DNA from: Aphrocallistes beatrix
Lineage: Eukaryota; Porifera; Hexactinellida; Sceptrulophora; Aphrocallistidae
NCBI GenBank assembly: GCA_963281255.1
Contig: OY725488.1
Span: 7,475,524-7,539,523 of the forward strand
Length of the DNA stretch: 64,000 nt
Direction of reading: 5' to 3'
Made by a program: the position numbers and the translations under genes. Below are positions 10,141-51,030 of the stretch, piece by piece (the first letter of the stretch is position 1; each line of letters opens with the position of its first letter). Below the pieces are notes generated by a model. It searched no databases, was not told the origin of the DNA, and saw only the letters and a list, made by a program, of their open reading frames with translations.

Positions 10141-12635
10141 ATGGCAAGCAATTACCGTTCATGTCCATATACCACTCTAAACACCATGCAAAGAAGAGCG
10201 AGACCAGATTCTCTCCCTACATCACAAATTCGTAGGCCCCATCTGTCCAAAATGCGCCCTAATATGAAAACATATTCAGGATCTCAGTATGGAACACATG
10301 CTACTCCTCGCCGAGAAGAGTTATTTCGTGCTGGAAACTATGTCGTCCTGAAAGGAGCTCAAATTGCAGGAGACCTGTATCACGCGGTGAACGTCTTCGA
10401 GAACAAGACATACATCACGAAGGTAAGCCCAGTCCTTTGACTGCATTCTAGCAGGTATTTAGAATTTACTTATTTCAGGCTGTTACTTAATATAATTATC
10501 TTTGCAGGTTGTTCATAAAAAAGATTGCTTCAAATCCATAAGTCACTACAAGAGTATTTGTTCCTGCACTGAACTCCCACATATCCATGACGTTGTATCA
10601 GTTAATGACTACACCCTTATCGTACTCGACCTCCATCCTTACTTCGATCAGCTGCCCGCTCAAGCGGATCAAGAAAAGGTTCAAAAGTACACGAAAGAAA
10701 TTCTCGAGCTTGTGAGCAAACTTCACGAGAGTGGTATCAGCCCTCAGAAAATGTCTATAGACGATTTCACTCGGTATAAGGATACACCTACCAGTGTTGG
10801 GTAAGTATATATTTTCAATTATTTTTGCTAATTACTTATAATATTTCCCAATTATATTTTTTGCAATCGAAACGCTTAGGATGTTTGGTAGGCAGAAAGG
10901 TCCAGAAGGTTATCAATTAGCTTACATGATATGACTTCCTGATTGTAATTCCAATTTATTGCTCATTATCTTGCATCATATAGCTTGCAAACATTTTTTC
11001 CGAACTTTAATCCCGATTAGCTATCCATATGTTCCAGAGGGAAATTCATTCTACTTGCATTCATAGGTTATACTAAGGCTTACAATATTTGATCTAAGCT
11101 TAATAATATTATTCAGCAGAGTTTTTCCGACTTTGTAACCAAATCTGATCACTTTTGCTGTATGTATTTTCCTGTACTTTTTCTTCCGACTCAATGCCGT
11201 AACATCCGAATTCTACTGTAAGCATACTAGTAATTGCTTAGCTTGGAATTTTAGTGATGCTTACATTACCTTAGATGAACTCTGCTTCACTTTGCTGCTT
11301 TACTTAGGCCAATGAGCGATTTGCTTTTAGCAGAAAAGGATAGAATTTCAAAAAAAATTAGTTTAGTATTACGTCCCGCGACTTGTCTTCAGGGAGAATA
11401 ACAAAAATCATGATTAGTTATGGAAAGTGTATGTCGGTTCGTTTTATGTCCCTAAGCAAATATTCTGATGAATTAGGCATTATGATTCTTGAATAATTCT
11501 ACTCAATAACCACATGCAGAAATTGAAAGCTTTTTATCCGGCTGTTCAATTGTTTGGTACCAAATATGTTTGGAGTTCACAACTTCAGCATTAGTTTGCT
11601 GAGGTCATTATATTATAAGTGATTCAGCATTTGAATCATATTTCGTCTCATTTTTTTCTAATTTGGATGAACTAGTATAGTCTACGCTCATTCATTATTC
11701 AAGTTGAATTAACAATTCATATGAATTATGAAATATGAATCACTAAGAAGGCATAACGTGACCTAGATATTACTGCCTAAGTCTACGTAACAACTTGTAA
11801 TGGATTTATTGAAAAGTTTCTCCAAATCAAATCTATTTTCGATACTGTCAAGGACAAGTACTTATCTCTCATTCTCTTTAGTTACCATTTACAAATGATG
11901 AAATTGGATGGGTCACTTATGCTGAATGATTTTGATGAGGAATTCGATGGAGTTGACCCTCACTCTTCACCAGAACTCGTCCATCTCTTTCTTAATCAGA
12001 AAAATACTGCAAACAAAGCAGATTCTTGTGGTTCAGAGTTAAACGCCTCCATAAGTAAGCTAGAAGCAATGCGCAACGGACTTGACCTTGAGAAGGCAGA
12101 CAGTTGGAGAGTAGGTGTCATGCTCTACACAATGCTTTCGGGAAAGTGAGTAGAAATTGATTTATTTGCATAAATTATTGTTTCATAGGCTTATGATAGA
12201 TATTAAGTAGTCAGCCATGGGAGGAGTGCTGGTGTGAGAAATATGCGATTAGATATGACAACACTCTGATTACAAATCAATAAATTATTTGCACTTCCGT
12301 AATATTTCATTGTAATGTTTGATAAAAAAATCATATTTTAATTTTGCTTTCCCCATAGAACACCTTTCCCTGACCCAGTGAAAGAAACACAAGGCTTCTT
12401 CGATGCTATTTACAACTCACAACTGAAACCCCCAACGAAAAAAACAACAAGAAACGCTTGGGAATTTCTCCTCGGACTGTTAGAACCAGACCCAGAAGAA
12501 CGATTAAGTATCTCTCAAGCCCTCGAACATCCTTGGTTACAAGAGTATGCTTTGAGAACAGAATCACACGGAATGTTATCAAGTAAAGAAGAACACAAGC
12601 TCCCCTCGAGCAACCCTTCAAGTCCTGTTTTATAA
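10141..12635 (+). CDS. Tribbles-like pseudokinase (4 exons)
   Basis: Exons 10141-10422, 10508-10800, 11882-12145 and 12359-12635 join in frame to 371 residues. The N-lobe (YVVLKGAQIAG... YITKVVHKK) keeps a lysine at the VAIK position. The catalytic loop is lost: HRDLK is replaced by a segment around SPQKMSIDDF. The DFG region reads DFDEE and APE reads SPE. The C-lobe is clear (WRVGVMLYTMLSGKTPFPDP, then RLSISQALEHPWLQ) and matches Tribbles best by pattern (VWSLGVMLYTLLVG in TRIB). Tribbles proteins are scaffolds that bring substrates to the COP1 ubiquitin ligase. The tail here ends in SNPSSPVL and I do not see the usual COP1-binding motif, so either the tail has diverged or this is another pseudokinase. 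The start is the first ATG, after a purine-rich leader. Confidence 0.65.
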
Positions 12636-15600
12636 AAAAAGAGTACTTTTTCGCGTCTTAATGATATCATTTAATTTTTACATTTAAAGCACCAAGCTAT
12701 TAAAAGAGTAAATATATATCACTTGTTTCCTAGTTATGCAATTGGCATCAACCGGAAAGTTAATTTGATCACGTGATGACATTCAGCTATTTATTTGCAA
12801 CGCAAAGTTTCTGGACAGTTTTATTTATTCATAATTTATTGCTCTTCTTTAAATGAACAAATTATTGACCAAATGTAATCTAAGATTGAAGATACGATCT
12901 CAAATGCAAAATAAAGCCGGAAACATATTTAAAAATCACGCATATACCTTTCGTTTACAGCTCAACAAAATTGAATTAACTCACTGGATCATTCATTCCC
13001 CCGACAGTATTGAACCTAGATAGGGGTGTGGGCTAGATACACTACAGACTAAATCACATTCTTGCATATTTTGACTCAGTTCATTTAGGATGTGATACAG
13101 AATATGATACTCTTGATAGGGATAAAATGATTTGTTTAAATTTCATTCTTGTCTCATCGATAGAAAAGTATTGTCTCATTTGCAAGTACGTACCACTACT
13201 ATATCCATAAGTTTTTTATGATATAGTAATGCCATGTTTTATTTATTTTTTCCATTTATAACATTGAGTTAGATTTCTTGGATGTTTACTAGATTCTCAT
13301 TGCCTCCAGGAATTTTACTTTTTGAACATTCTACGATAGAGCATACCTTCCAAGATGTAAATTTGTATATTTGAGGAGATTAATTTTGCGATGGTGTCTT
13401 TTTTAAAAAAATGATCTACATCGGAGTCAGCAATGCTAAATTTCTTTAAATCCTACACAAAATGAATATTACATTATAAAACCGGGAAGTAAGCAAATGA
13501 CTGAATAATGGGATTTTCTAAATTTGAAACTCGTACATATCTACAACTTACAACTAGACATGCGTGAGTTGCAACAGGAAGACTTTCTCAAACCTCCGTG
13601 CAACCTGTAAATAATAATGTGCGTAGTAGACAAAGACTACCGCACCAGTTAGGATGGAACCACGTAAGTATGATCTAATATACCAATAGTTTCTATTGCA
13701 GTAATTAATCAATATGTATATCTCCAACTAGTTGCTTTCATGTTAGCTTTGTGCTGGAGTAGTTTGTCTAATGCAGATACGCGATACAATATCTCACATG
13801 GGATGATTTACGTTCACAGATTTTAGCCACACACATACATATATTACGTTGTGAAACAGATCCCTAAATTAAGATTAGTCTTTATTTGTCTCCGTCGCTT
13901 AATCTTAGAGTCTAATTGCGTTTATTACACCACATGCCACACTGACTATGAAATTATACACAACATCGCCTACCGGACCACTCAATCTCTTGGGCAATAA
14001 TAGCTTTTTCCTTAAGAATATGATTATTATCCAACCAAATACGTGCGGTATCCAAGCTCTATTTGTGTTTTTAGTCTTGGGTAATATTTTCAGTATTTTA
14101 GAGCAGCTGTTGTGAGTAATCAAATTCGACATAAGATGGTACTGCTCTGGTATGCAGTCAATTCTCACTACCTACACTAATTGGAAGGAATCCTACCCAG
14201 CTGCGCTAGAATGTGGAATTTTTGAGAGGGATACTCGGAGAGAGTTTTTGAGTCGACATTACTCTCAGTTTATTGAAGTTTTGTCACCTAGTCTTGCTTG
14301 ATATTAGTATGCGTATTTTCAGACTATAGCTATTGCCAGACCATTCGCGTTTTCCTTCGATGATGAATTGCAAGAGTATCCTAGTGGGGCCTAGGATAAC
14401 GGCAGCATGGGCTAGATTTTCGGCCTTACTGAAAGTATGGATTATGTGGCCGGGACCAGAGGTAAGTTGGTGGTCGAGGGTTACCCTCCTGATGAGTCCC
14501 TGGGATGGGACGAAACTACCCATTACATCTGATCACATTTTGCCTAAGATATCCAAAAACAGAGAATACCAGCTCAATCGCATATTTATCTATTTGTTCG
14601 TAACTTTTTCTTTTTCTGAACAGAAGTAACCTAAGTCCTTATCTCTCTGACATGGAATGTTTGATACTGTTTATAAGCTTTATTTCTGGTTGATTCCCCC
14701 ACGCTCAATAAATGGAAATTATATGATCATTTCCCTCATCATAACGCAAAACCATCAAATAATTATAAAACACAGAAAGCAGTAGGGACAAGTTGCTTTA
14801 TCATAAACAGATGTCTTAAATGCTTAACCTCCTACTGATACTGACCTCAACCTACAGCTCTACCTCAAAGCTCCTATGACCAGACCCCGTCACACTTTCT
14901 TAGTCAGCTATTAATATTGTCTATGGTACGCAATTTTTTTATCTAAGCATTGAAACATATCTGTTCTAAAACCTCAACATCCATTAAAGATGCCATTTTG
15001 AAATGTAGCCAACGTATACACTTTTGTTTTTTTCTGGATTCCAATAATTAAAAAGGTTTTTTTTTCACTTTTCTATTTCTAGTTCTCCGAGGACATGAAT
15101 TTTCAATGCTAATAGAGTTCTGATATTTCGAATATAATACGTAGTAGTCTTGTATTTTTCTAGATGTATAATTATATTGAGATTCTTACCAGATATTATG
15201 CTTTCGAGGATGATAGTATTGTTTAGTTTATTAACAATATATTACTAAGGTCATCAAGTATACTTTACTTGTAGTTCGCCAGTATTGTTAGAGCACCAAC
15301 TTATCTGGTGATAAATTATCTAGGGACGTAGGAGGCGGTGCGGCTGGTAAGGCCATGGCCATACCACTTTTATAGAAACTTGGTTCTATGAACGATAAGT
15401 TGGAGGATCCGCACCACTTTTTATGAGCTACCGATGGCCCTGCTATTAATACTTCATCCCAGGGGGCGTATCTAGGGGTGCAAGAGAGCCAGGCGCTCCT
15501 ATAACTCAGTTATCGATTTGAGAGTTCAGGTGTCTTTACATAGATTTTATAGATAAGTCCCCAGACCATCCCTATAGTCATTCCATTCCAAAGAGTTCCT

Positions 15601-15999
15601 TTTGGTAGGCCAGCCCCCAGATCCCCCTTATGATCAGCAACTCCAATACTTTCTTCTGTGTGACAGGACCCTCCTTACCGTCGCTCGCTCCGCCTGTTCT
15701 TGCCCCCCTCCCTCACTTTTACAAAAAAGTGTGAAATCTTTACGCCTATCGTTACAAGACTAAGATATACTACGGTACGTGGTAAAACAGTAAGAATCTT
15801 TTTATGCTACTTAGTAAAATAGGCCAGAATATTTTCTCGTATAGTGTTTGAGTTCTATTTCCACTGCTCGCCTAGGCAAATAAGTTTATTTTCTGAAACT
15901 GGTTCTAACTGACTTTCCTTAAACATACACAGCCTATTAAGGCTATGATTAATGAATGTATAATTAGTTTAAACCCACACTCCTAGTAATTGAAGTAGA
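12636..15999. other. Intergenic region with a ribozyme and repeat scraps
   Basis: Mostly AT-rich and non-coding. Two GC-richer patches stand out. One at about 14330-14520 ends in a hammerhead ribozyme (listed separately). The other, at about 15310-15720, contains a half-element starting CAGGGGGCGTA at 15460 that resembles a hAT MITE left end; I could not find its right end. An acceptor-like tcctag at 15981-15986 precedes the next start codon by 13 nt. Confidence 0.5.
14469..14520 (+). ncRNA. Hammerhead self-cleaving ribozyme (type III topology)
   Basis: All core elements are present in order. Stem III 5' strand GGTGG (14469-14473) leads into cleavage triplet GTC (14473-14475). Stem I is a closed hairpin, GAGGG-TTA-CCCTC (14476-14488). 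The conserved core CTGATGA follows at 14489-14495. Stem II is GTCCC/GGGAC (14496-14500 with 14507-14511) around a 6-nt loop. GAAA is at 14512-14515, and CTACC (14516-14520) closes stem III, pairing G-C, G-U, U-A, G-C, G-C. The predicted cut is after C14475. Stem III is the open stem. The first loop is only 3 nt, so loop-loop contacts that speed natural hammerheads may be weak. It lies in a GC-rich patch between genes, so it may belong to a SINE- or retrozyme-like element. Confidence 0.85.
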
Positions 16000-18900
16000 A
16001 TGGGATGCTTCCCCAGCAAGAAAACGCCGAAGTCAGACAAAGAGCCTCTTCTCTCTCCAAATGAAGAAACTGGTCTCGACTCGGCTAAGAGACTCGTAGC
16101 CTGGCTCAGCACCGAATCATCCAGCAGCGAACCTCAGATTACGGAGCAGCGAGTTCGAGATCTGTGCGTGTTAGCCTATTCAGACCAGGTGGATCGTAAT
16201 GAGGCCGCGGCTGTCTCGTTTGTTGAGCTGTGTCAGCGCATGACCCAACCAGTTCCAGAGATGATGCTCCCGCCAATGATTAAGCTGCTTCAGTCTCCAG
16301 AATATGAGGTAGAATTACAAAAATATGCCTAATCAATTTGCTCAAGGGAAATTAATCTCAGAGTCACGCCAAGTAAGAATATTCTGATTTGGCGCAACAA
16401 AGTTGGAATAATCTTACAAAAATTTACTTACCGTTGCACCAAGTAGGAATATTCTTACTTGGAGTAGAACAACGGTACTTTTATGAAAAGGGAAAGTACT
16501 AAATATTACTTATTTTTGAGTAATGATTCTGAATATTTATCAGCTCTTTCTGCCCCCAGGTGCAGAAGTCAGCTTCTTTAGCCCTCACGCACTTAGCAAC
16601 TAGAGGCCCTGCTCAGAACAAGATTATGGTCGTCCAGTCCGGAGCTCTGTCCGCACTCCTTCCACTCCTGAAAAGTCCTCACGATGATATCCGGTGCAAC
16701 GTGTGTGGCTGCATCACTACGCTGGCCACACTCGACGCCACCAAGAGACAGATCGTGGTACAAGGTGCGATCCCCCCACTCATCGATTTGATAAGAAACA
16801 CAGACATCACCAAAGACGCCATTTTGAGGAATGCGGCTGGTGCGCTATTAAATTTGTCACATGTAGAAATTAACAGGTAGAGTTGTGCAGTCAAGCGTCT
16901 GCTAATTATACAATTGCACTTGTAACGATGGATCAAAATATTTGCAATCTTACAGATTTTTATTGTGCAAATTATCTTGCATTGCGACACAACTTCGGCC
17001 GCTCCTTATCCTGGAAATGCTGACATAATTCTATATAATTTCACATTGCACCATGAACATGACCCTAGCAGAAAGAAGGACGTTATTTTAAAATGCTTAC
17101 ATATGTTTTTTTGAGTAACTTCTCTTAATTCCCATAATTCCGAATCTTCTGATTATAAAATGATTTTGCTAAATCGAGGGTTCAGGAATGTCAGTGGTCC
17201 CCGGGACTTCTGATCCTAAGGCAAACAGTCTCCAGCCCTAGTTCTCAAGTCCTGGAAGACATGACATCTAGCCCTTGGGTAGCAGACTTCCAAGAAGACA
17301 GGGCTGGGCTAGGATTGGATGGGGGACCACACACACCGTGAAGTAGATCTAGGGTGTCAGTGGATAAGGATACCCGATGCGTGATGAGATGAACAGCAAT
17401 AATCTGTCATTCTTCAATCCACAATTAAAACCTCTTTTTAACTCCCACTTAAATTAGGTGTCTTCTCCGGAGGAGCTAGGGGACCATCATATTTACACTG
17501 TACCTTTATCTTCATCGAACTAAATTCTTCTAGTTTGCATGCAACTCAAGTTATATCCTAGCCTTTATTTTTATGTGGGATTCTCTAACTAATAATAGGA
17601 TTAAATATTTGCACTTCCAGGTATGACCTCCATCGGGCCGGTGCGAGCGGGGAGTTCATGAGGCTGCTGGGCTCCAAGGACTGCGACGTCCAGTTCTATG
17701 CTTGTGCTTCTCTTAGCAATTTCGCAGTACACTCGTCCATCCGACAGGCGCTCACTCAAGAAAAAGATGGGATTATTTTCAAATCTTTGATAAATCTGCT
17801 CTCCTCGCATTCAGAAAAAGTATTTTAATTATACATTCGAGTTGAATTTCTGTTTTCATACTCTTACGACTTATTTTCGATTAATCCAGGTTATTAATTG
17901 AAGATACTTAATATGTGTCGCAGTCCAAATGCGTTTCGATGCCAAACGCGTTTGGCGTGGAAACGTATTTGGACTGCGAAATTACTATTAATTCTTAAGA
18001 TCCACTCGATCATCCGCGTCTATCTGAAGTTTTAACATTCTTCGTATGGAATATTAGTTTCCTTCAAAGCCAGAAACCGTCTATAATTGTCCGAAAAGCA
18101 TCCTCCACTGACTTAGCAAGCCATTGCCATGTTGAGCATGAATTTGAATGGGTATCATGATCTTGACATTATCTTGACTATATTTAGGGTATCTGGTAAT
18201 GGATGTTCCTTTTGATTCGGACAATGTTTAGGGATCTAGAGATACAAGCAATGAACGAATGCTATATTTACGTCAGGAGCTTTATACTGATTATACTGTC
18301 TTGTTCATTGGTATCTCTTTGTTTCCATTGATGGTTATTTCCAAATCCATTTTTAATTAATGAAACATTATCATCTGACTCTATCCTGCATAAACTGAGT
18401 GATACATCTGCGAAATTTAGCTGCAATCAAAATTATATTTAGTTTATTTGTCCAAGTGCTTTTTTAGGTATTAGCTGAACCTTATTAGAATTGTATTCAG
18501 ATATATAGATAGAACGTAGGTTTTTAATTATTTTTCTGAATCAAATGATCACTAATTCAATTTTTTATTAAGAGTATAATGAAGATTGCGAATACTCAAT
18601 CTGGAAGAACAAGCTGCAACGTGTGACCGCTAGTCCATGTGTTATGTTGCAATAGTAATTTGTTTAGCATTTCATTAAGGCCCTTGTTTTGTTAATCAGA
18701 ATCCCTGCCGAGTGATTACTGAATTCGTACAAGTCAGGACAATTAGGCTGCCATGTTGTATCGCACTGACTAATCAGTTGGACATTTGACCTTAATTTCC
18801 TAGATTTGTGGGTATCTCTTAATACGAAATGCTATCAAAGCAGATTTATCTGTTGTTCAAGTACGGAAGTTCAGTTCTACTAATTGGATTTTGAAATGTA

Positions 18901-21900
18901 CTTGTACAGTATTAACATTCTAATGTCAGGGATTTCTTGTTGACGTTTAAGAATTGATATTAAAGTCATTGTCTAAAAAATGCAAACAGGTTACAGGTGT
19001 ATTTTTTTTAATCGACAGAAAGCATTGATACATTCGACTAACTACTTAAGAAACGATTATTGAACAATAAATATATTTAGTAATCTGAATTCCATTTGGT
19101 TCCATGTACCACTGTACCAGTCTCGTGATAATGAGATAAATATGCTGAACTACACATTTTGAAATTTTAAAATGTGATTCAATAATTATGCTAACAAGCA
19201 TACTTCTACTCCTTAATAGAGGTTCTGATGGGAAGTGTTTTTTAAATGCTACTAAATTTCGCTTTAATCTTAATCTATGCCACCTTGAATTTATTAATTC
19301 GATATAAGTTTACCATTTCCTGCTATGGATATTAGCATTGAATACTTACAATTTGCAAATAATGCCACTAGTGCATCCTAAATGATCAGGAGTTAATTAC
19401 ATTTGTAATTTTGTATTTTATCAACTTTAAACTCGTTAATTTGAAGCGAGACATAATTATATGTTGTGCAATGAGTAATATTTTATATTATGGTACAATT
19501 ATGTTTGCCAATGTCATTACTTCATAATTTCACCATTCTGGCGTCTAGTGCAAAATTCAACTTTTTATCTCTAAGAGCATATTTATACTTCCACTAACAG
19601 GTTCAGCAGGTTTTTGCGTCTTTGACCTGTTTTGTTGTTTTTCTCAAATTTGCTTACTCTTCCTCTTTTCATGCTTTTTTTTGGTTTAAATAATTATATA
19701 TGTACCATGCTAGCCTTTAACCTTTCTATACTTTGCCAGATTTAGATGTGTTTTAATGTTATTTTGTCTACTTTAAATGCTCATATTGCACACGCACGGA
19801 CATATTGATGTACCATAAAAACAAATTAATAGAATTAAAGTAATCCTTGTTTTTATCAATCTTGTCTTCAGGTTAGTTCACAAGCAGCCTACGTTATTCG
19901 TAACCTCGCTTCTGCTGACGAGAATCAGACAAAGTTTGTTGAATGTGGTGTACTGGAATCTTTATACAACTTACTGCTTTCAAAGCAACAAGGTTCAATG
20001 GTTGCTTCTCTTGCTGCTATCCGGAATATTTCTATCCATCCGAAGAACGAGCAACCCATCATGTCCACAGGGTTTCCTGAGCTACTGTGCAGCATTGTAC
20101 AGGAATCAAAGATGCCTGAAATGTTGTGCCATGCTATTGGAACCCTAAGGTATGCAATCACTGTAGTTTACAGCCTATGAAAATCCCTTCTACTCGGTAA
20201 TTGTGTCTACTTATTATTTTGTAAAATTATAGTATTTTAAAGTAACTAAATTAAAATTGCATACGTACTTTTTATTAAAATTTACAAAAAAGCATCTAAA
20301 ACCCCCTTTCTTGATGTTGCTTATCCGCATTCTACTCTCCTTATTATAATTTCATAAAATTCTCGTAAGCTTTCAAATCTATTACGAATATTAACTAATT
20401 TTATACTAAGGTAAATTTCACAAATCAACTTCTTCATTTTAAATTTAGCACAACAATTGTCTACAAAGGTAAAATGACTAAGTAGGCTATATCTCAGTTC
20501 TTGAGAAATTGGATAGGATGAATTTGACCTTTAATTAAACTTAGTCATTTGAGATGGAAATTAACCTTTAAGAAAATCAAGAAGGTGCATAATATAGCCA
20601 TTTCTTGAGACACACTTGTGGATATAAATGTACGTATATGTGTTGGTATAGGTAGACATAATTATATAGTAACTATTATTCTCGATGAAACATACTTTAA
20701 GGATTTGTGTGCTATAATCAAATACAACTGGCCGTAGTACTCTCCAACGCAATGAACCCAATGCATGATCCAAACATTGATTGCTCTGTAACATTATTTT
20801 AACGCTATTAGACATTTCATCATGTTTTCATGGCGCTGTCGTGAAGTAATCTGACAGAGGCTAGAAGATTGGTAAAGACTTTATAATATCCAAACAAAAG
20901 ACTCGAGCAAGAAGTCCTTTTCATTAACAACCATGGATAATATATATTTGTTTAATTAGTTACTTTTTTTAGTTTGTCGACTATACTATAGTATAGCGGC
21001 CAACTAGTTGATTTCGCTCCTGGCAAGACCATGAGAGATAATAGGCTGAAAGTTTGGGAATAGGTGCTTTGAGAACATGGGGTGTGCACCTTAAGTACGC
21101 AATCCTGTATGAATAATTCATGTAATATAAAGGCCCCCATACACGATGCAACAAAGTTGCGTGCAACCTATTTTTCATGCAACAATGTTGCACAAAAATT
21201 GAACATGTTCTATTTCCATGCTACATGTTGCCGTGCATGGGGGCCATAATTATTAAGTTAATTAATTAATTAAGGATAAAACTATGTTTAAAACTTAATA
21301 ACTTCATAATGAAAAGCGATAGAAAAAACTTCTAACGAAAAGATGTTCATCATATACTACCTTAACACCTTTTTATGGATATATATTTGTGGTCTAGTGA
21401 CGATGACTCATCGCAAAGCGATCACAAGTGAGTATAGTCTGGGAAAGTTATTGCTCAAATAATTATGTCCCGCTGTGCTGGACGATACTCACTTGGTATC
21501 GCGGCGCATTCGTGGGATGTCTGGATGGTGACTGCCTGAGAAAGGTGGAGGCAAACCGGAGTATCTTTTTGATACTTTTTAATGGTAAAGGAATCCTTTA
21601 CAGCAACTAATACGGTTGTTTTTCCCTCTTGAGAACAATGGCGCTTCAAACTTATTTGCTAGCACTCGCATTCCACAACGTTTCTACCTACTTTTGTGTT
21701 GCTTTAGTTCGTTAGTAATTACGATTGTAACGAAATATTTGGGCCCTTTTTTCTATCAATTAAGTTAATAATGCATGTCTGAGTCTATGGTCAAACTCAA
21801 AAGGTTAGAACAAAAGTAATGAGTACTATAGGGTCGAGTTAAAAGGGAATATTATTATCTGTCGATTTAACTATTGATCTGTTAATTAATAATGTCCCTT

Positions 21901-32144: not shown

Positions 32145-32360
32145 ACGACGATGTATCTGCACCCTCAGCAGAAATTTAAAACATTTATTCTGGCTCTTCC
32201 CGTACTAATATTATTCATTTGGCATGTGCTACTATGGAACTAAAACATTGTATACACTTCTAATAAAGTTAAGACCTATATATAATGCACTAGTATTGAA
32301 ACAAGAGAATAGTAAACTGGCTAAATTCAAGAACTAATTTAATATATTCTTTGTTTATTT

Positions 32361-32670
32361 GTCAAGTCAAGTCAAGTCAAGTCAAGTCAAGTCATGTCAT
32401 GTCATGTCAAGTCATGTCAAGTCAAGTCATGTCATGTCATGTCATGTCAAGTCAAGTCATGTCATGTCATGTCATGTCATGTCAAGTCAAGTCATGTCAA
32501 GTCATGTCAAGTCAAGTCATGTCATGTCATGTCATGTCATGTCATGTCAAGTCAAGTCATGTCATGTCATGTCATGTCATGTCATGTCATGTCAAGTCAT
32601 GTCAAGTCAAGTAATGTCAAGTCAAGTCAAGTCATGTCAAGTCAAGTCATGTCAAGTCAAGTCAAGTCAA
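32361..32670. repeat. Pentamer satellite (GTCAA/GTCAT), 62 copies
   Basis: There are 62 back-to-back pentamers without a single length change: about 30 GTCAA, 31 GTCAT and one GTAAT. Because 5 is prime to 3 and the unit lacks stops, all three forward frames stay open, which gives false ORFs of the MSSQVKS type. It is followed by two copies of GTCTGTCCCTCAAG (32671-32684 and 32694-32707). Confidence 0.97.
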
Positions 32671-33003
32671 GTCTGTCCCTCAAGCTAAGTCAAGTCTGTC
32701 CCTCAAGTCTCAATATTGTGATTAACTATTCTTTTGATATTTTGTATGTATTAAGTATTAAATAATTCGACTATGTGCATTAAAAACCAAATAATATATC
32801 TCATTTCAATTGTTCTGAAATAATAGTTAGTTTGTCAGGGGGGTGAATGCCTAAATTGATGGAAAATTGAAATACGTATCTACAATATCAAAATTATTGG
32901 TTTTGAAGTATTTAACCAATCCATGGTACTAATTTTTTGGTGAGTGCCATTGCCTTAGTATATAGAATGCTATGATGTATATAATTATTTTATAATTATC
33001 ATA

Positions 33004-33070
33004 TAACAAGCCCGCTTCGCTTGCTTGCAGACACTCGTGTCCACAGAGTCGCCCTGCGGGCACCTGGAGT
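33004..33070. repeat. Hairpin-chain repeat copy
   Basis: It starts with CAAGCCCGCTTCGCTTGCTTGC and continues with GACACTCGTGTC and GCCCTGCGGGC stem-loops. It is the same family as at 30659 and 43102, and stands just before the 140-bp tandem repeat. Confidence 0.7.
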
Positions 33071-33110
33071 TACTCAATCTAACCTATTTTACAAATTAAT
33101 TATCAAATTT

Positions 33111-33460
33111 ATTCGAAATCTACACCCCTGAAAACCCCATGTCAACCGTTGAAAGCAAGTTTCGAGCATATTTTTGAGATTTGTTTACTTTATGTATCTA
33201 TTGTAAACAAAAGTAAACAAATTAATCATCAAACTTACTCGAAAATATGATATTTGAAATCTACACCCTTAAAACCCCATGTCAACCGTTGAAAGCAAGT
33301 TTCTAGCATATTTTTGAGATTTGTTTACTTTATGTATCTAATGTAAACAAAGGTAAACAAATAATTTATCATATAGATCTGAAAATATGATATTCGAAAT
33401 CTACACCCCTAAAAACCCCATGTCCCCCGTTGGAAGCTAGTCTCTAGCATGTTTTTCAAA
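33111..33460. repeat. 140-bp tandem repeat, about 2.5 copies
   Basis: The marker ATCTACACCC recurs at 33118, 33259 and 33399, a period of 140-141 bp, followed each time by AAAACCCCATGTC, GAAAGC(A/T)AG and TTTGTTTACTTTATG. Single diverged copies occur at about 30980 and 42660, in both cases next to hairpin-chain repeats, so the two sequences belong to one larger dispersed unit. Confidence 0.85.
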
Positions 33461-33469
33461 ATTCGTATA

Positions 33470-33655
33470 ATTATTATATAATTATTATTATAATTATTAT
33501 ATAATTATTGTATAATTATTATATAATTATTATATAATTATTATATAATTATTGTATAATTATTATATAATTATTATATAATTATTGTATAATTATTATA
33601 TAATTATTGTATAATTATTATATAATTATTGTATAATTATTATATAATTATTTTA
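33470..33655. repeat. AT-only tandem array (ATAATTATTAT/ATAATTATTGT)
   Basis: Near-perfect 11-bp repeats of TATAATTATT(A/G) run for about 180 bp. The strand-symmetric ATAATTAT core makes the whole array self-complementary. The G variants recur irregularly. Confidence 0.9.
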
Positions 33656-33686
33656 CTAGTATTATACAATTATTTTATATTTATTT

Positions 33687-47054: not shown

Positions 47055-47679
47055 TTTGACTTCATAATTCAGATTCTTATTATCATTTTGTAAACTCTTT
47101 AGAAGTAACTACCTTCTCAGATTATTCTCTTATTATATGAATGAATATTAGAAAAATGACTAGATTATTTCGAAACGGCTTGGCTTTATCTAGTTGCGTA
47201 ATGACTAAACTCTTCAACGCACCATTTCATATCCGTTTGATTTGATTATTTTTTCATTAAAAAATTTAAACAGTTTGTAGAATCTAATAGGATAATTTAG
47301 GCGAGGTACCGAGATTGTTCGTGTCCACATTAGAAACTAAATCCCGAAAATCAAAGTAGGTACTCGCCTGGATTATTAGAACTGAGCGAGTACTCATTTT
47401 TTCATATTATTCTACTTCTAATTGCGCTGGTACGAAAGTTAGTAACCAATATGTTTAATTTAAAACATGCATATAGTATATAACAAATAATTTGAGGAAT
47501 AGTATATATTACACACATAGATTTAGAGAAAATAAATGCTAGGAGGTTAATTAATTAATAAATCCCGAGCCGGACAAGGATAGGGGTCTGGTGTTTGGTG
47601 GGTATGGAAACCCAGAACGAGTCAGAAACGTTGACTTTCGCATGATCACATTGCTGCATTGTGGCCACATCCTACTTTT
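47055..47679. other. Intergenic spacer, nothing recognised
   Basis: AT-rich sequence between BET and the broken DET1 copy. It holds the BET 3' UTR. The last 100 bp become GC-richer and begin to resemble the 5' part of the intact DET1 gene. Confidence 0.5.
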
Positions 47680-49185
47680 CCCAATGTAAACTCCTCAATA
47701 AAACTATCAAATCTGTACCGCATTCAGATATCAACTACAGTTCACTCCAAGTGGAGAACACCTGGTCAAATCAGCCAATCCTATGATACCCTCTTCACCT
47801 ACAGATACAAGGGTGTCGATAGGGAGGCGGTGAGGTGTGCCCCTCTCACTGGCATCTTTGACGAGATATTCCAACTGGAACACACCATCCCTACCCCGGA
47901 TCCTCAGTTCACCTACTGTCCCGACTCTTGCTTCCTCTTCACGGAAGACTCACTCTTCTTGCTCGTGCTTGTCGTCAAGGAATTTGGTTCTGCCAGCCTC
48001 GACATCAACTCCACCCCAGAATTTCTCCCATCTCGCGAGGGTTACTTAGGCGCAGGAAGTCACCTGATGGTGGCACCTAGTGCTGCTGGGAACCACGAGT
48101 ACCTGATGTGCAGTCTGGTACTGGTTAGTCTGAGGACAGGCGAAGCGTTGAAGGGTGTTGAAGTAGCGGCAATTAAGAAGAGATCAAGGACGAGGGTGTG
48201 CGTTGAGCTGAGCGTATGGTTGCATGGCTACACTGTAGCCTTACTGTCTCCCGTCTACCAGAACATTTTCCTCCACATGATCCAGGCTGACGCGAGATCA
48301 TCTGGGAAATGGGTCGAGATTTGTGATCCAATCAGTCACTTCCTCTCCTACACAGACTACGTTGAGACCTTCCTCGCTCACCCAAGTTTCACTCCCCTTC
48401 CTCATCCTGCCCATGTGTTTCCTCCTTCCATACTGTCACAGTTGCAGCAGAAAATCTTCGCTTGTCTATACCACAAGTACTCCACTTGTGGCCGGATGAG
48501 TGAGGCGATGCTGTCTTTCTACCGGTTGTGGGAAGCTCTGAAGAAGTTACCAATCTGGAGGGTTCAGCTGCTGGACGGGGGCACACTCTTCCTCCGTTAC
48601 CGGGAGCTGCATGTCTCCTCCAAGGGTACCAGCACCTATCCACTCAGCATGTGGGTGATCTACTGCTATCCCGAACAGCGAGTTCTCCAGGTATTCTGCG
48701 ACCAGCTGGACCATCTTTCACAGCTGCTCGTATACTGTGAGCAGAAGTTGCCCGCATTTTGTCAACACATACGTTATAACATGTGGTACTCCAGTCGTTC
48801 TAAGCTAGTGGGGAGAGGTGAGTCACACAGCTCTGAGGACCTGGTGCGCCAGCTGATGGAGCGCTACCCGGTAAGGCTGCACAGGATGCCTTGCTATTCT
48901 CCCTACCTGGACAGGCACATATACTTAGCTCACCAATTACTGCCCATGACCTACTCGAGTAAATCGATGGATTTTGATGAATCCATCTGCTTCTATAATG
49001 CTCGAACCCTCAACTTCAGTTTCAACCTTGACCTATCCCTCTCCGGTTCTTCCTCCAGGGAACTAACCCTCATCCCCCACCCACATGACTACTTCATTAT
49101 CTCGGTTGAGCGACGGGAATCCACGGTAGAGTTCAATTTTCATCTACGATTCAAAGGAAATTTATTATGGGAACCTACTGACTAA
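47680..49185 (+). pseudogene. DET1: DET1 copy with damaged 5' end
   Basis: From 47773 to 49181 the sequence is an unbroken match to the minus-strand DET1 copy. Upstream (47680-47772) it is clearly homologous but diverged. Compared with the intact copy it has one-base deletions near 47738 and 47768-47771, which break the frame of the N-terminal part (the DIIYKFTPSGKHLV segment). The open frame that reaches the conserved part starts at a TTG (47659) and encodes an unrelated N-terminus; the first in-frame ATG lies well inside the protein (MVAPSAAG). So this copy lacks a usable start unless another promoter and exon are used. Stop codon TAA follows EPTD. Confidence 0.7.
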
Positions 49186-50865
49186 TAGCTAATTCTCGAT
49201 ATAGTGATACAATTATGTACTCCTATTCAAGTTTTAGTTTTAATCAGTAGGTTCCCNNNNNNNNNNNNNNNNNNNNNNNNNNNNNNNNNNNNNNNNNNNN
49301 NNNNNNNNNNNNNNNNNNNNNNNNNNNNNNNNNNNNNNNNNNNNNNNNNNNNNNNNNNNNNNNNNNNNNNNNNNNNNNNNNNNNNNNNNNNNNNNNNNNN
49401 NNNNNNNNNNNNNNNNNNNNNNNNNNNNNNNNNNNNNNNNNNNNNNNNNNNNNNNNTCAGTAGGTTCCCATAATAAATTTCCTTTGAATCGTAGATGAAA
49501 ATTGAACTCTACCGTGGATTCCCGTCGCTCAACCGAGATAATGAAGTAGTCATGTGGGTGGGGGATGAGGGTTAGTTCCCTGGAGGAAGAACCGGAGAGG
49601 GATAGGTCAAGGTTGAAACTGAAGTTGAGGGTTCGAGCATTATAGAAGCAGATGGATTCATCAAAATCCATCGATTTACTCGAGTAGGTCATGGGCAGTA
49701 ATTGGTGAGCTAAGTATATGTGCCTGTCCAGGTAGGGAGAATAGCAAGGCATCCTGTGCAGCCTTACCGGGTAGCGCTCCATCAGCTGGCGCACCAGGTC
49801 CTCAGAGCTGTGTGACTCACCTCTCCCCACTAGCTTAGAACGACTGGAGTACCACATGTTATAACGTATGTGTTGACAAAATGCGGGCAACTTCTGCTCA
49901 CAGTATACGAGCAGCTGTGAAAGATGGTCCAGCTGGTCGCAGAATACCTGGAGAACTCGCTGTTCGGGATAGCAGTAGATCACCCACATGCTGAGTGGAT
50001 AGGTGCTGGTACCCTTGGAGGAGACATGCAGCTCCCGGTAACGGAGGAAGAGTGTGCCCCCGTCCAGCAGCTGAACCCTCCAGATTGGTAACTTCTTCAG
50101 AGCTTCCCACAACCGGTAGAAAGACAGCATCGCCTCACTCATCCGGCCACAAGTGGAGTACTTGTGGTATAGACAAGCGAAGATTTTCTGCTGCAACTGT
50201 GACAGTATGGAAGGAGGAAACACATGGGCAGGATGAGGAAGGGGAGTGAAACTTGGGTGAGCGAGGAAGGTCTCAACGTAGTCTGTGTAGGAGAGGAAGT
50301 GACTGATTGGATCACAAATCTCGACCCATTTCCCAGATGATCTCGCGTCAGCCTGGATCATGTGGAGGAAAATGTTCTGGTAGACGGGAGACAGTAAGGC
50401 TACAGTGTAGCCATGCAACCATACGCTCAGCTCAACGCACACCCTCGTCCTTGATCTCTTCTTAATTGCCGCTACTTCAACACCCTTCAACGCTTCGCCT
50501 GTCCTCAGACTAACCAGTACCAGACTGCACATCAGGTACTCGTGGTTCCCAGCAGCACTAGGTGCCACCATCAGGTGACTTCCTGCGCCTAAGTAACCCT
50601 CGCGAGATGGGAGAAATTCTGGGGTGGAGTTGATGTCGAGGCTGGCAGAACCAAATTCCTTGACGACAAGCACGAGCAAGAAGAGTGAGTCTTCCGTGAA
50701 GAGGAAGCAAGAGTCGGGACAGTAGGTGAACTGAGGATCCGGGGTAGGGATGGTGTGTTCCAGTTGGAATATCTCGTCAAAGATGCCAGTGAGAGGGGCA
50801 CACCTCACCGCCTCCCTATCGACACCCTTGTATCTGTAGGTGAAGAGGGTATCGTAGGATTGGCT
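47773..50865. repeat. Large palindrome: 1409-bp inverted arms around 62 bp
   Basis: Arms 47773-49181 (+) and 49457-50865 (-) are both exactly 1409 bp, and their shadow reading frames translate identically in both arms, so synonymous positions are the same too. The true spacer is 49182-49243 (62 bp), since the 13 bases TCAGTAGGTTCCC just left of the N gap repeat exactly at its right edge. The run of N is therefore probably an artefact of contig overlap. Confidence 0.85.
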
Positions 50866-51030
50866 AAACGTGACCAGGTGCTTTCCACTCGGAGTGAACT
50901 TGTAGATGATATCTGAACGCGGTACGGACTTGACAGTATTATGAGGAGTTATACATTGGTACGGGTAGGAGTGGGATGGGTTGGTGACGTCTGCTGATTG
51001 TTGCTGTCTTCTTTTCAGATAATTTAGCAT
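49240..51030 (-). CDS. DET1: DET1 homologue, intact copy
   Basis: Single exon read from the ATG at 51030. Without the gap it would code for 525 residues (human DET1 has 550). It resembles DET1 throughout: SDIIYKFTPSGKHLVTFS near the start, CFLFTEDS (CSLFTDD in human), PIWRVQLLDGGTLFLRY (MWKMQLLDENHLFIKY in human), YSPYLDRHIYL, and FIISVERRESTVEFNFHLR at the end. DET1 works with DDB1, DDA1 and COP1 in a CUL4 ubiquitin ligase and acts in the nucleus. The coordinates include the 200 N and 17 bases beyond it; the real end is the TAA shown at 49240-49242 once the overlap is collapsed. It lies tail-to-tail with the damaged copy. Confidence 0.85.
   Translation of the reverse strand: MLNYLKRRQQQSADVTNPSHSYPYQCITPHNTVKSVPRSDIIYKFTPSGKHLVTFSQSYDTLFTYRYKGVDREAVRCAPLTGIFDEIFQLEHTIPTPDPQFTYCPDSCFLFTEDSLFLLVLVVKEFGSASLDINSTPEFLPSREGYLGAGSHLMVAPSAAGNHEYLMCSLVLVSLRTGEALKGVEVAAIKKRSRTRVCVELSVWLHGYTVALLSPVYQNIFLHMIQADARSSGKWVEICDPISHFLSYTDYVETFLAHPSFTPLPHPAHVFPPSILSQLQQKIFACLYHKYSTCGRMSEAMLSFYRLWEALKKLPIWRVQLLDGGTLFLRYRELHVSSKGTSTYPLSMWVIYCYPEQRVLQVFCDQLDHLSQLLVYCEQKLPAFCQHIRYNMWYSSRSKLVGRGESHSSEDLVRQLMERYPVRLHRMPCYSPYLDRHIYLAHQLLPMTYSSKSMDFDESICFYNARTLNFSFNLDLSLSGSSSRELTLIPHPHDYFIISVERRESTVEFNFHLRFKGNLLWEPTXXXXXXXXXXXXXXXXXXXXXXXXXXXXXXXXXXXXXXXXXXXXXXXXXXXXXXXXXXXXXXXXXXXXEPTD
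49257..49456. other. Scaffold gap of 200 N, likely spurious
   Basis: Exactly 200 N. The same 13 bases (TCAGTAGGTTCCC) lie at its left (49244-49256) and right (49457-49469) edges, so the two contigs overlap there. The right contig begins exactly at the edge of the 1409-bp inverted repeat. Confidence 0.9.

What the first reader, a model, noticed from the sequence alone, without database searches (positions are those of the whole stretch)
14469..14520. Intact hammerhead ribozyme in an intergenic spacer
Seen directly: CTGATGA core, 5-bp stem II, GAAA, GTC cleavage triplet, a closed 5-bp stem I and a 5-bp stem III pair in the right order, with one G-U pair. A chance match of core plus three stems is very unlikely. 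Known: hammerheads occur in animal genomes in SINEs, retrozymes and Penelope-like elements, mostly with stem I open. Here stem III is the open stem and stem I has a 3-nt loop, which is unusual. The surrounding GC-rich patch (about 14330-14520) suggests a carrier element.
Basis: partly seen in the sequence, partly recalled or inferred. Interest (0 to 1): 0.85.

Follow-up and report, generated by a model that had tools for sequence, protein, structure and literature searches.

The report
Plant-type self-cutting RNA in glass sponge
A short stretch of DNA between two genes of what appears to be a glass sponge encodes an intact self-cutting RNA motif of the kind best known from plants and viroids, one of some two dozen related copies in that genome that look as if mobile elements had spread them.

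Summary
Window 14468-14521 (+) is a complete type III hammerhead ribozyme: Rfam RF00008, 58.8 bits, cut-off 48.5. All 16 helix pairs form; minimum-energy and centroid folds are the hammerhead. It lies between a kinase gene and an armadillo-repeat gene; the best named match of a window protein is the glass sponge Oopsacas minuta. The 100.5 Mb genome has 25 RF00008 matches, 12 over cut-off; no type I match was found (control silent). Between carrier groups the ribozyme is 78% identical, while 54-base flanks match like shuffled sequence; helices covary. The carriers are not one repeat. Two families are solo-LTR-like units of 180-256 bp with exact 5-bp target duplications in 8 of 12 copies with both ends found. 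A diverged ribozyme sits in a Ginger-like DNA transposon. The window copy's flanks match nothing else found; its proposed LTR ends (14148-14571) are tentative. I read it as a solo relic of an animal counterpart of plant LTR retrozymes. Cleavage was not tested.

The parts
14468..14521 (+). type III hammerhead ribozyme (whole RF00008 match)
   Evidence: cmscan 58.8 bits, gathering 48.5, model 1-54 of 54
14469..14474 (+). stem III, 5' strand (open stem; GGTGGT, includes U16.1)
   Evidence: 6 of 6 standard pairs with 14515-14520
14473..14475 (+). GTC cleavage triplet; cut expected after C14475
   Evidence: sequence; cleavage not tested
14476..14488 (+). closed stem I GAGGG-TTA-CCCTC
   Evidence: 5 of 5 pairs; one of its pairs is C-G instead of A-U in 3 of 18 aligned copies
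14489..14495 (+). catalytic core CTGATGA
   Evidence: the same seven bases are present in 23 of 26 copies read
14496..14511 (+). stem II GTCCC-TGGGAT-GGGAC
   Evidence: 5 of 5 pairs
14512..14520 (+). GAAA core and stem III, 3' strand (ACTACC, from A14515)
14148..14571 (+). tentative 424-bp solo-LTR-like carrier (TGGTATGC ... GAATACCA)
   Evidence: TG...CA ends, 7 of 8 inverted terminal bases, 4-bp duplication; 10 of 1166 control positions in this window do as well; post hoc. No second copy found
14144..14147 (+). tentative target-site duplication GCTC, left
14572..14575 (+). tentative target-site duplication GCTC, right
14330..14520 (.). GC-rich patch inside the spacer
   Evidence: 51.3% GC against a mean of 36.5% for 191-base windows of 12650-15990
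12342..12635 (+). last recognised coding stretch of the upstream gene (C-terminal part of a protein kinase domain)
   Evidence: Pkinase 2.5e-05, 24.2 bits, below its cut-off of 31.7; open frame ends in a stop
16000..16332 (+). probable first coding stretch of the downstream armadillo-repeat gene (MGCFPSKK...; ATG at 16000)
   Evidence: open frame, no Pfam match of its own; Arm repeats in the frames 16533-16880 and 19839-20180; that they are one gene is read by eye

Best explanation
The window holds one intact type III hammerhead ribozyme, the preserved core of an old solo-LTR-like insertion. Its lineage is a set of hammerhead-bearing elements in a glass sponge that are the animal counterpart of plant LTR retrozymes. 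In a source element, transcripts crossing the unit would fold, cut after GTC and leave 2',3'-cyclic phosphate and 5'-OH ends; with two units in one transcript the excised piece could be circularised, copied by a borrowed reverse transcriptase and inserted by an LTR-type integrase (5-bp duplications, TG...CA ends). The window copy stands alone, so it could only cut a read-through transcript once, between the kinase gene and the armadillo-repeat gene that both run in its direction. Shown: the ribozyme, its relatives, conservation and covariation of the ribozyme, and short units with 5-bp duplications for two sister families. Inferred: cleavage, circular RNA, reverse transcription, and that the window copy belongs to the same kind of unit.
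For: RF00008 match far over cut-off. The helices form in full, and minimum-energy and centroid folds of 14462-14526 are the hammerhead. 25 RF00008 matches in the genome, 12 over cut-off; a 33-base core pattern with up to 3 mismatches gives 17 matches against 0 for the reversed control. Between carrier groups mean ribozyme identity is 0.776 against 0.480 and 0.472 for the 54-base flanks and 0.473 for shuffled sequence, 141 pairs from 19 loci. Covariation on 18 copies: 7 of 16 pairs with changes on both sides (3 of 500 shuffles as high); covariation score reached by 0 of 500. Exact 5-bp duplications: 6 of 9 family A and 2 of 3 family B copies with both ends found; no other length from 3 to 7 matched exactly. 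Copy L011 reads as a mosaic of A and B, as template switching would give. The window has LTR-like ends with a 4-bp duplication that 10 of 1166 control positions equal.
Against: No convincing LTR-internal-LTR element was found. Of 30 hammerhead loci one lies within 25 kb of any of the 150 integrase hits scored (of 641 candidates), and that one is a tandem-duplicated solo unit; this test is weak, since the list did not show the integrase pieces that lie inside the Ginger-like copies. No primer-binding site or polypurine tract could be assigned. The window's flanks have no relative; its proposed ends rest on a 4-bp, not a 5-bp, duplication, and the search was post hoc. Folding energies are not below shuffled sequence for the window copy (z -0.85) and are so at z below -2 for only 2 of 9 units. 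Four of 12 copies with both ends found lack an exact 5-bp duplication. No RNA data were available.
Confidence: 0.62

Rival explanations
1. The window ribozyme is not just a relic but has been kept at this place by selection, cutting transcripts between the kinase and the armadillo-repeat gene (as proposed for some 3'-UTR and intronic hammerheads of vertebrates).
For: It ranks third of 25 matches by score although its flanks have no recognisable relative; it lies in sense with both flanking genes.
Against: Intactness alone does not need selection here: two loci score higher (60.6 and 60.3 bits) and one only 0.9 bit lower, and two of these, L002 and L004, are 97% identical over 137 bases and so look young. 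No orthologue could be examined.
Confidence: 0.12
2. The 180-256 bp units are not solo LTRs but complete minimal elements: DNA copies of a ribozyme-bearing RNA of about unit length.
For: Every copy I could delimit is a single unit; no convincing pair of units around an internal region appeared. Unit sizes lie in the range given for animal retrozyme circles (about 170-400 nt).
Against: Solo LTRs are common; in Jatropha most unpaired retrozyme hammerheads are solo LTRs (PMC4918200, passages). Constant ends away from the cut site are odd for a copy of a circle opened by the ribozyme.
Confidence: 0.15
3. The carrier is a Penelope-like element, an autonomous home of hammerheads in animals.
For: The pair L001/L009 (C9:720426 and 721445) flanks a reverse-transcriptase fragment (RVT_1 2.8e-04, below cut-off). 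That it is Penelope-like is my reading of its motifs from recall.
Against: Three related copies read (C9:4999400-5003200 with a 700-aa frame, and two on C6) hold no RF00008 match and no match to model R1 at E 0.1; in the 700-aa frame the protein runs on past the point where the ribozyme unit begins in L001. Known Penelope hammerheads are minimal type I; no type I was found (whose control rang nowhere). 76 reverse-transcriptase matches exist; I read three.
Confidence: 0.05
4. Endogenous copy of a viroid-like or delta-like RNA.
For: Type III hammerheads are the type of viroids, satellites and some delta-like RNAs.
Against: Delta-like hammerheads are an atypical long-stem type III, unlike these. 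No ribozyme of opposite polarity in the window. Sister units have integrase-like 5-bp duplications. I did not search for a delta antigen gene as such.
Confidence: 0.04

Closest known systems
Plant LTR retrozymes (Cervera, Urbina and de la Pena 2016, PMC4918200; passages)
   Same: Type III hammerhead inside LTR-like units, many present as solo LTRs; short target-site duplications.
   Different: Animal host; units 180-256 bp instead of 300-400; 5-bp instead of 4-bp duplications (window tentative: 4 bp); no complete two-LTR element, primer-binding site or polypurine tract found.
Metazoan non-LTR retrozymes (Cervera and de la Pena 2020, PMC7229834; passages)
   Same: Short ribozyme-bearing repeats dispersed in an animal genome.
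   Different: Those carry type I hammerheads in tandem repeats and lack LTR features; here type III, single units, mostly TG...CA ends.
Penelope-like elements and Terminons with minimal type I hammerheads (passages)
   Same: Animal retroelements with a hammerhead in or near a terminal repeat.
   Different: Ribozyme type; no hammerhead beside the three related reverse transcriptases read here.
Type III hammerheads of delta-like RNAs, termites and dipterans (PMC7936874; passages)
   Same: Type III hammerheads in animal genomes.
   Different: Those have longer stems I and II with extra loop pairing; the sponge motif is the compact RF00008 form.
Ginger1 DNA transposons (PMC2836005; passages)
   Same: For side family D: integrase pieces, OTU protease, TIRs, 4-bp target duplications.
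   Different: A hammerhead between the OTU frame and the 3' TIR; termini TGTTT rather than TGTNR; duplications GTGC and GGCC rather than CCGG or CCGT.

Membership tests
Hammerhead ribozyme, type III (RF00008) | CTGATGA and GAAA cores and a NUH cleavage triplet between three helices | tested here: met
Hammerhead ribozyme, type III (RF00008) | helix III open, helices I and II closed by loops | tested here: met
Hammerhead ribozyme, type III (RF00008) | covariance-model score over the gathering cut-off | tested here: met
   58.8 against 48.5 bits
Hammerhead ribozyme, type III (RF00008) | helices supported by compensatory changes in relatives | tested here: met
   7 of 16 pairs with changes on both sides, 18 sequences chosen as told in the report
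Hammerhead ribozyme, type III (RF00008) | self-cleavage after the triplet | not testable with these tools
   needs bench work
LTR retrozyme (plant type) | type III hammerhead inside an LTR-like unit with TG...CA ends and target duplication | tested here: met
   families A and B only: exact 5-bp duplication in 8 of 12 copies with both ends found
LTR retrozyme (plant type) | the same for the window copy itself | tested here: inconclusive
   one candidate pair of ends, control rate 10 of 1166; no second copy
LTR retrozyme (plant type) | two LTRs around a non-coding internal region | tested here: not met
   no convincing pair among the loci found
LTR retrozyme (plant type) | primer-binding site and polypurine tract | tested here: inconclusive
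   no internal region found; a purine-rich stretch shared by L009 and L074 did not adjoin retroelement coding sequence at L074
LTR retrozyme (plant type) | 4-bp target duplications | tested here: not met
   exactly 5 bp wherever exact in families A and B
LTR retrozyme (plant type) | abundant circular RNA | not testable with these tools
   no RNA data
Metazoan non-LTR retrozyme | type I hammerhead | tested here: not met
   type III; no RF00163 match in the genome, though the control genomes gave none either
Metazoan non-LTR retrozyme | tandem repeats | tested here: not met
   no tandem array at the locus; no tandem units among the loci found
Penelope-like element with hammerhead | hammerhead in terminal repeats of a reverse-transcriptase element | tested here: not met
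   three related copies of 76 matches read, none with a hammerhead
Ginger1 DNA transposon (family D carrier only) | Gypsy-like integrase with OTU domain, TIRs and 4-bp duplication | tested here: met
   pieces: Integrase_H2C2 4.6e-13; rve 4.2e-07 (30.6 bits, cut-off 32.6); rve_3 0.0056 (below cut-off); OTU 2.2e-09 in L022; TIRs and duplications GTGC and GGCC in two copies
Ginger1 DNA transposon (family D carrier only) | CCGG or CCGT target duplications and TGTNR termini | tested here: not met
   GTGC and GGCC in two copies; TGTTT

The most novel reading that the evidence does not exclude
Glass sponges harbour an animal lineage of LTR-type retrozymes with type III hammerheads, reduced to one-unit elements of about 200 bp that may be complete as they stand, and the same kind of ribozyme also works inside a cut-and-paste DNA transposon (Ginger-like). 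Self-cleaving hammerheads would then not be tied to reverse-transcribing elements, and LTR retrozymes would not be a plant speciality.
Probability: 0.25. Interest if true: 0.85.

Novelty: new variant of a known kind. Interest (0 to 1): 0.6.

Why it matters
In the passages I could read, canonical type III hammerheads in eukaryote genomes belong mainly to plants, in LTR retrozymes, while animal hammerheads are mostly type I in non-LTR retrozymes and Penelope-like elements. A type III family in solo-LTR-like units of a sponge would carry that architecture into the animals, bears on whether viroid-type ribozymes arose once or repeatedly, and offers a small genome in which the life cycle can be tested. 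A hammerhead inside a DNA transposon would ask for a role other than processing a template for reverse transcription.

Tried and rejected
Common carrier from aligned flanks: rejected, because flanks between groups match like shuffled sequence. Penelope-like carrier: the reverse-transcriptase fragment between L001 and L009 is a broken copy, and three related copies read hold no hammerhead. Polypurine tract before L009/L074 as proof of a 3' LTR: L074 lies beside what looks by eye like a host sugar-transporter gene, so the claim was dropped. LTR pair at C3:287735 and 296959 around an integrase hit: the two units share flanking sequence, so they are a tandem duplication of one insertion. LTR pair C9:4502220 and 4510604 (same strand, 8.4 kb apart): ends and flanks do not fit a pair, judged by eye. 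RNA folding energy of whole units: z from +0.31 to -5.24 over 9 units, two below -2 (-2.42 and -5.24), not used. Viral contig with the same core pattern (4 matches): a phage with a gpA-type terminase, taken as unrelated. Type I and type II hammerheads in this genome: none found, but the control genomes rang for neither, so absence is not shown. Literature: among the papers listed I found none on hammerheads in sponges or in Ginger elements. Limits: one search listed 15 of 414 papers; of most listed papers I saw only title and abstract; the one paper with all three terms speaks of hammerheads in Terminons (passages); the hits that I opened have the words in unrelated places, and one hit was not opened; the library lacks most subscription papers. 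One survey of hammerheads, asked for by a DOI I recalled, is not held; another (PMC3088659, over 10,000 hammerheads, sequences in a supplement) I saw only as two passages, so animal type III copies may already be listed there.

Full report
WHAT IS THERE. The stretch 14468-14521 on the + strand is a full type III hammerhead ribozyme. Rfam RF00008 matches over all 54 positions at 58.8 bits (cut-off 48.5, E 1.6e-10 for the window), and nothing else in the 64 kb reaches an Rfam gathering score. Stem III has 6 of 6 pairs with one G-U, stem I 5 of 5, stem II 5 of 5; the cores CTGATGA and GAAA and the triplet GTC are exact. The minimum-energy and centroid structures of 14462-14526 are the hammerhead, and a longer piece extends stem III by further pairs. 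The folding energy is not below that of shuffled sequence (z -0.85), so the case rests on sequence, order of helices and relatives, not on stability.

WHERE IT SITS. Searching part of one window protein, the best named match is Oopsacas minuta (77% identity); two unnamed proteins (79% and 76%) rank above it, and the next named sponge, Amphimedon, is at 44%. I take the organism to be a glass sponge; the assembly has 100.5 Mb in 28 contigs. The ribozyme lies between the last recognised kinase stretch (ends 12635; Pfam match below cut-off) and the probable first coding stretch of an armadillo-repeat gene (ATG at 16000), in sense with both.

RELATIVES. The genome has 25 RF00008 matches at E up to 1e-3, 12 over cut-off (only the best 68 of 13935 candidates were scored, so this is a lower bound). 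Further, mostly decayed copies came from DNA searches: five of six such loci tested with model R1 score 25-34 bits and one (L056) 50 bits, against 77 for the window copy, which is part of the model. A 33-base core pattern with up to 3 mismatches gives 17 matches and 0 in the reversed control. Of 26 copies read, 23 hold CTGATGA, 23 hold CGAAA and 21 hold both; some of these 21 have deletions in stems. No type I or type II match was found, but the control genomes rang for neither.

THE RIBOZYME IS WHAT IS CONSERVED. I compared 19 loci in eight carrier groups (the 20 loci of types A-C less L011, a mosaic, and L016, a duplicate, plus L038). The 141 between-group pairs give mean identity 0.776 in the ribozyme, 0.480 and 0.472 in the adjoining 54 bases, and 0.473 for shuffled sequence. 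On an alignment of 18 copies (17 of those 20 loci plus L038; L011, L016 and L024, which have deletions, were left out, which favours pairing) 87.5% of cells pair, 7 of 16 pairs change on both sides (3 of 500 shuffles as high), and the covariation score is not reached in 500 shuffles. Related sequences can exceed such shuffles without structure; but sliding the partners by 1-3 columns drops pairing to 44-59%.

CARRIERS. Family A (L002, L004, L006, L007, L010-L012, L014, L016, L048 and fragments) is a unit of 180-232 bp, typically TGTAGTAT ... TATTACA. Family B (L005, L015, L023, L024, L076) is one of 243-256 bp, TGTACTGG ... CCACA. Both ends were found in 9 of 11 A copies and 3 of 5 B copies examined; the ends were set with patterns written after seeing the alignment, and L006 has a decayed start and L048 a decayed end. 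Exact 5-bp target duplications flank 6 of those 9 and 2 of those 3, and no other length from 3 to 7 matched exactly in any; the four others match at 4, 0, 3 and 3 of 5 bases. L010 and L016 are copies of one insertion, so the independent A count is 5. L011 is A with a B-like stretch around the ribozyme. A looser group C (L001, L009, L038, L073-L075) shares sequence around the ribozyme; L001, L009 and L073 end in CTTACGACA. Its 5' ends are uncertain; L073 may run from TGTTAGG to that end between two GAAT (by eye). L008, L013, L017, L020 and the window copy have flanks of their own (L017 and L020 are weakly alike). Eight of the 20 A-C loci lie on contig C9, 5% of the assembly (binomial 2.8e-6; 7 of 18, 1.5e-5, without L009 and L016).

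A DNA TRANSPOSON AS CARRIER. Four loci (L018, L019, L021, L022) carry a longer-stemmed hammerhead 3' of a sequence that in L022 is an OTU-protease frame (2.2e-09), similar frames in L021 and L019, and a frame-broken relative (89% DNA identity) in L018. L021 and L022 belong to copies of 5838 and 5868 bp (C13:1616842-1622679, C2:6649480-6655347), 99.8% alike over the 2667 bases compared, bounded by inverted repeats that begin TGTTTCGTTG and by duplications GTGC and GGCC. Pieces match the integrase zinc-binding and core domains (4.6e-13; 4.2e-07, the latter below its cut-off). This fits Ginger1 apart from target sequence and fifth terminal base. I did not scan the whole element for a reverse transcriptase. 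L025 has the same ribozyme type in unrelated flanks; over the four distinct sequences 96.4% of cells pair and 5 pairs change on both sides, each in one sequence only. L019 and L025 have GTA, still NUH, in place of GTC.

THE WINDOW COPY. Its flanks (14100-14480 and 14300-14600 searched) match nothing else outside the ribozyme. A search for TG...CA ends found no 5-bp duplication and one 4-bp duplication with at least 5 of 8 inverted terminal bases: TGGTATGC at 14148, GAATACCA ending at 14571, 7 of 8 inverted bases, GCTC on both sides. Ten of 1166 control positions in the same window do as well. This is suggestive and post hoc.

HOW IT MOST LIKELY WORKS. Shown: an intact ribozyme motif, kept alike across copies while their surroundings differ, in units with integrase-like ends. 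Inferred: transcripts across two units cut themselves, the excised RNA is closed to a circle and copied into DNA by a borrowed reverse transcriptase, as proposed for plant retrozymes (PMC4918200 and PMC7761336, passages). A solo copy such as the window's can only cut a passing transcript once. Against this: no convincing two-unit element was found, and only one of 30 hammerhead loci is within 25 kb of the 150 integrase hits scored of 641 candidates, that one being a tandem duplication. That list is no proof of absence: the integrase pieces of the Ginger-like copies are themselves missing from it.

COMPARED WITH WHAT IS KNOWN. From the passages read: metazoan genomes mostly carry type I hammerheads, in tandem non-LTR retrozymes or as minimal forms in Penelope-like elements; type III belongs mainly to plants, where it sits in LTR retrozymes (PMC7229834, PMC7761336, PMC6155905, PMC4918200). 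Type III forms in termites, dipterans and delta-like RNAs are a long-stemmed variant (PMC7936874). The sponge units resemble LTR retrozymes in anatomy but fail two defining features tested here (two LTRs; 4-bp duplications), so I do not file them as members. I found no report of hammerheads in sponges or Ginger elements in the listings, within the limits told under Tried and rejected.

VERDICT. Real, correctly described, with an interpretation that needs correcting: not one carrier, not a Penelope-like or SINE setting, but a type III family in an animal with LTR-like and DNA-transposon carriers.

Noticed in passing
G000 C13:1616842-1622679 (L068, L022) and C2:6649480-6655347 (L021, L077): Ginger-like DNA transposon with a hammerhead ribozyme between its OTU-protease frame and the 3' inverted repeat; two copies 99.8% alike over the 2667 bases compared suggest recent activity.
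   Followed up: partly
G000 contig C9: 8 of the 20 type A-C hammerhead loci lie on this contig, which is 5% of the assembly; reason unknown.
   Followed up: no
window 47665-50974: Inverted duplication with arms of about 1.5 kb, 98.6% alike, with a run of 200 N (49257-49456) next to one arm; may be a scaffolding artefact around a gap.
   Followed up: partly
window 32360-33685: Array of about 64 copies of a 5-base unit (TGTCA), followed by tandem repeats of 140 and 11 bases.
   Followed up: no
L072 6620-8257, contig IMGVR_UViG_3300036826_000065: Four type III hammerhead-like motifs on one strand within 1.7 kb of a phage contig with a gpA terminase that seems to hold a LAGLIDADG insertion; all four score below the Rfam cut-off.
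   Followed up: partly
G000 C9:5000771-5001109 and other places: A reverse-transcriptase family (Penelope-like by recall of its motifs) with 76 matches, several in long open frames, the second-best one 17 kb from the end of contig C9.
   Followed up: partly
L005 1807-2451 (-) and L020 369-872 (+): Two hammerhead loci each lie 3' of, and in sense with, related GNAT acetyltransferase frames; probably coincidence of a gene family.
   Followed up: partly
L071 1058-1149 (G000 C6): A strong inverted repeat inside a reverse-transcriptase copy gives sub-threshold matches to several microRNA families on both strands; most likely a rearranged, back-to-back copy.
   Followed up: no
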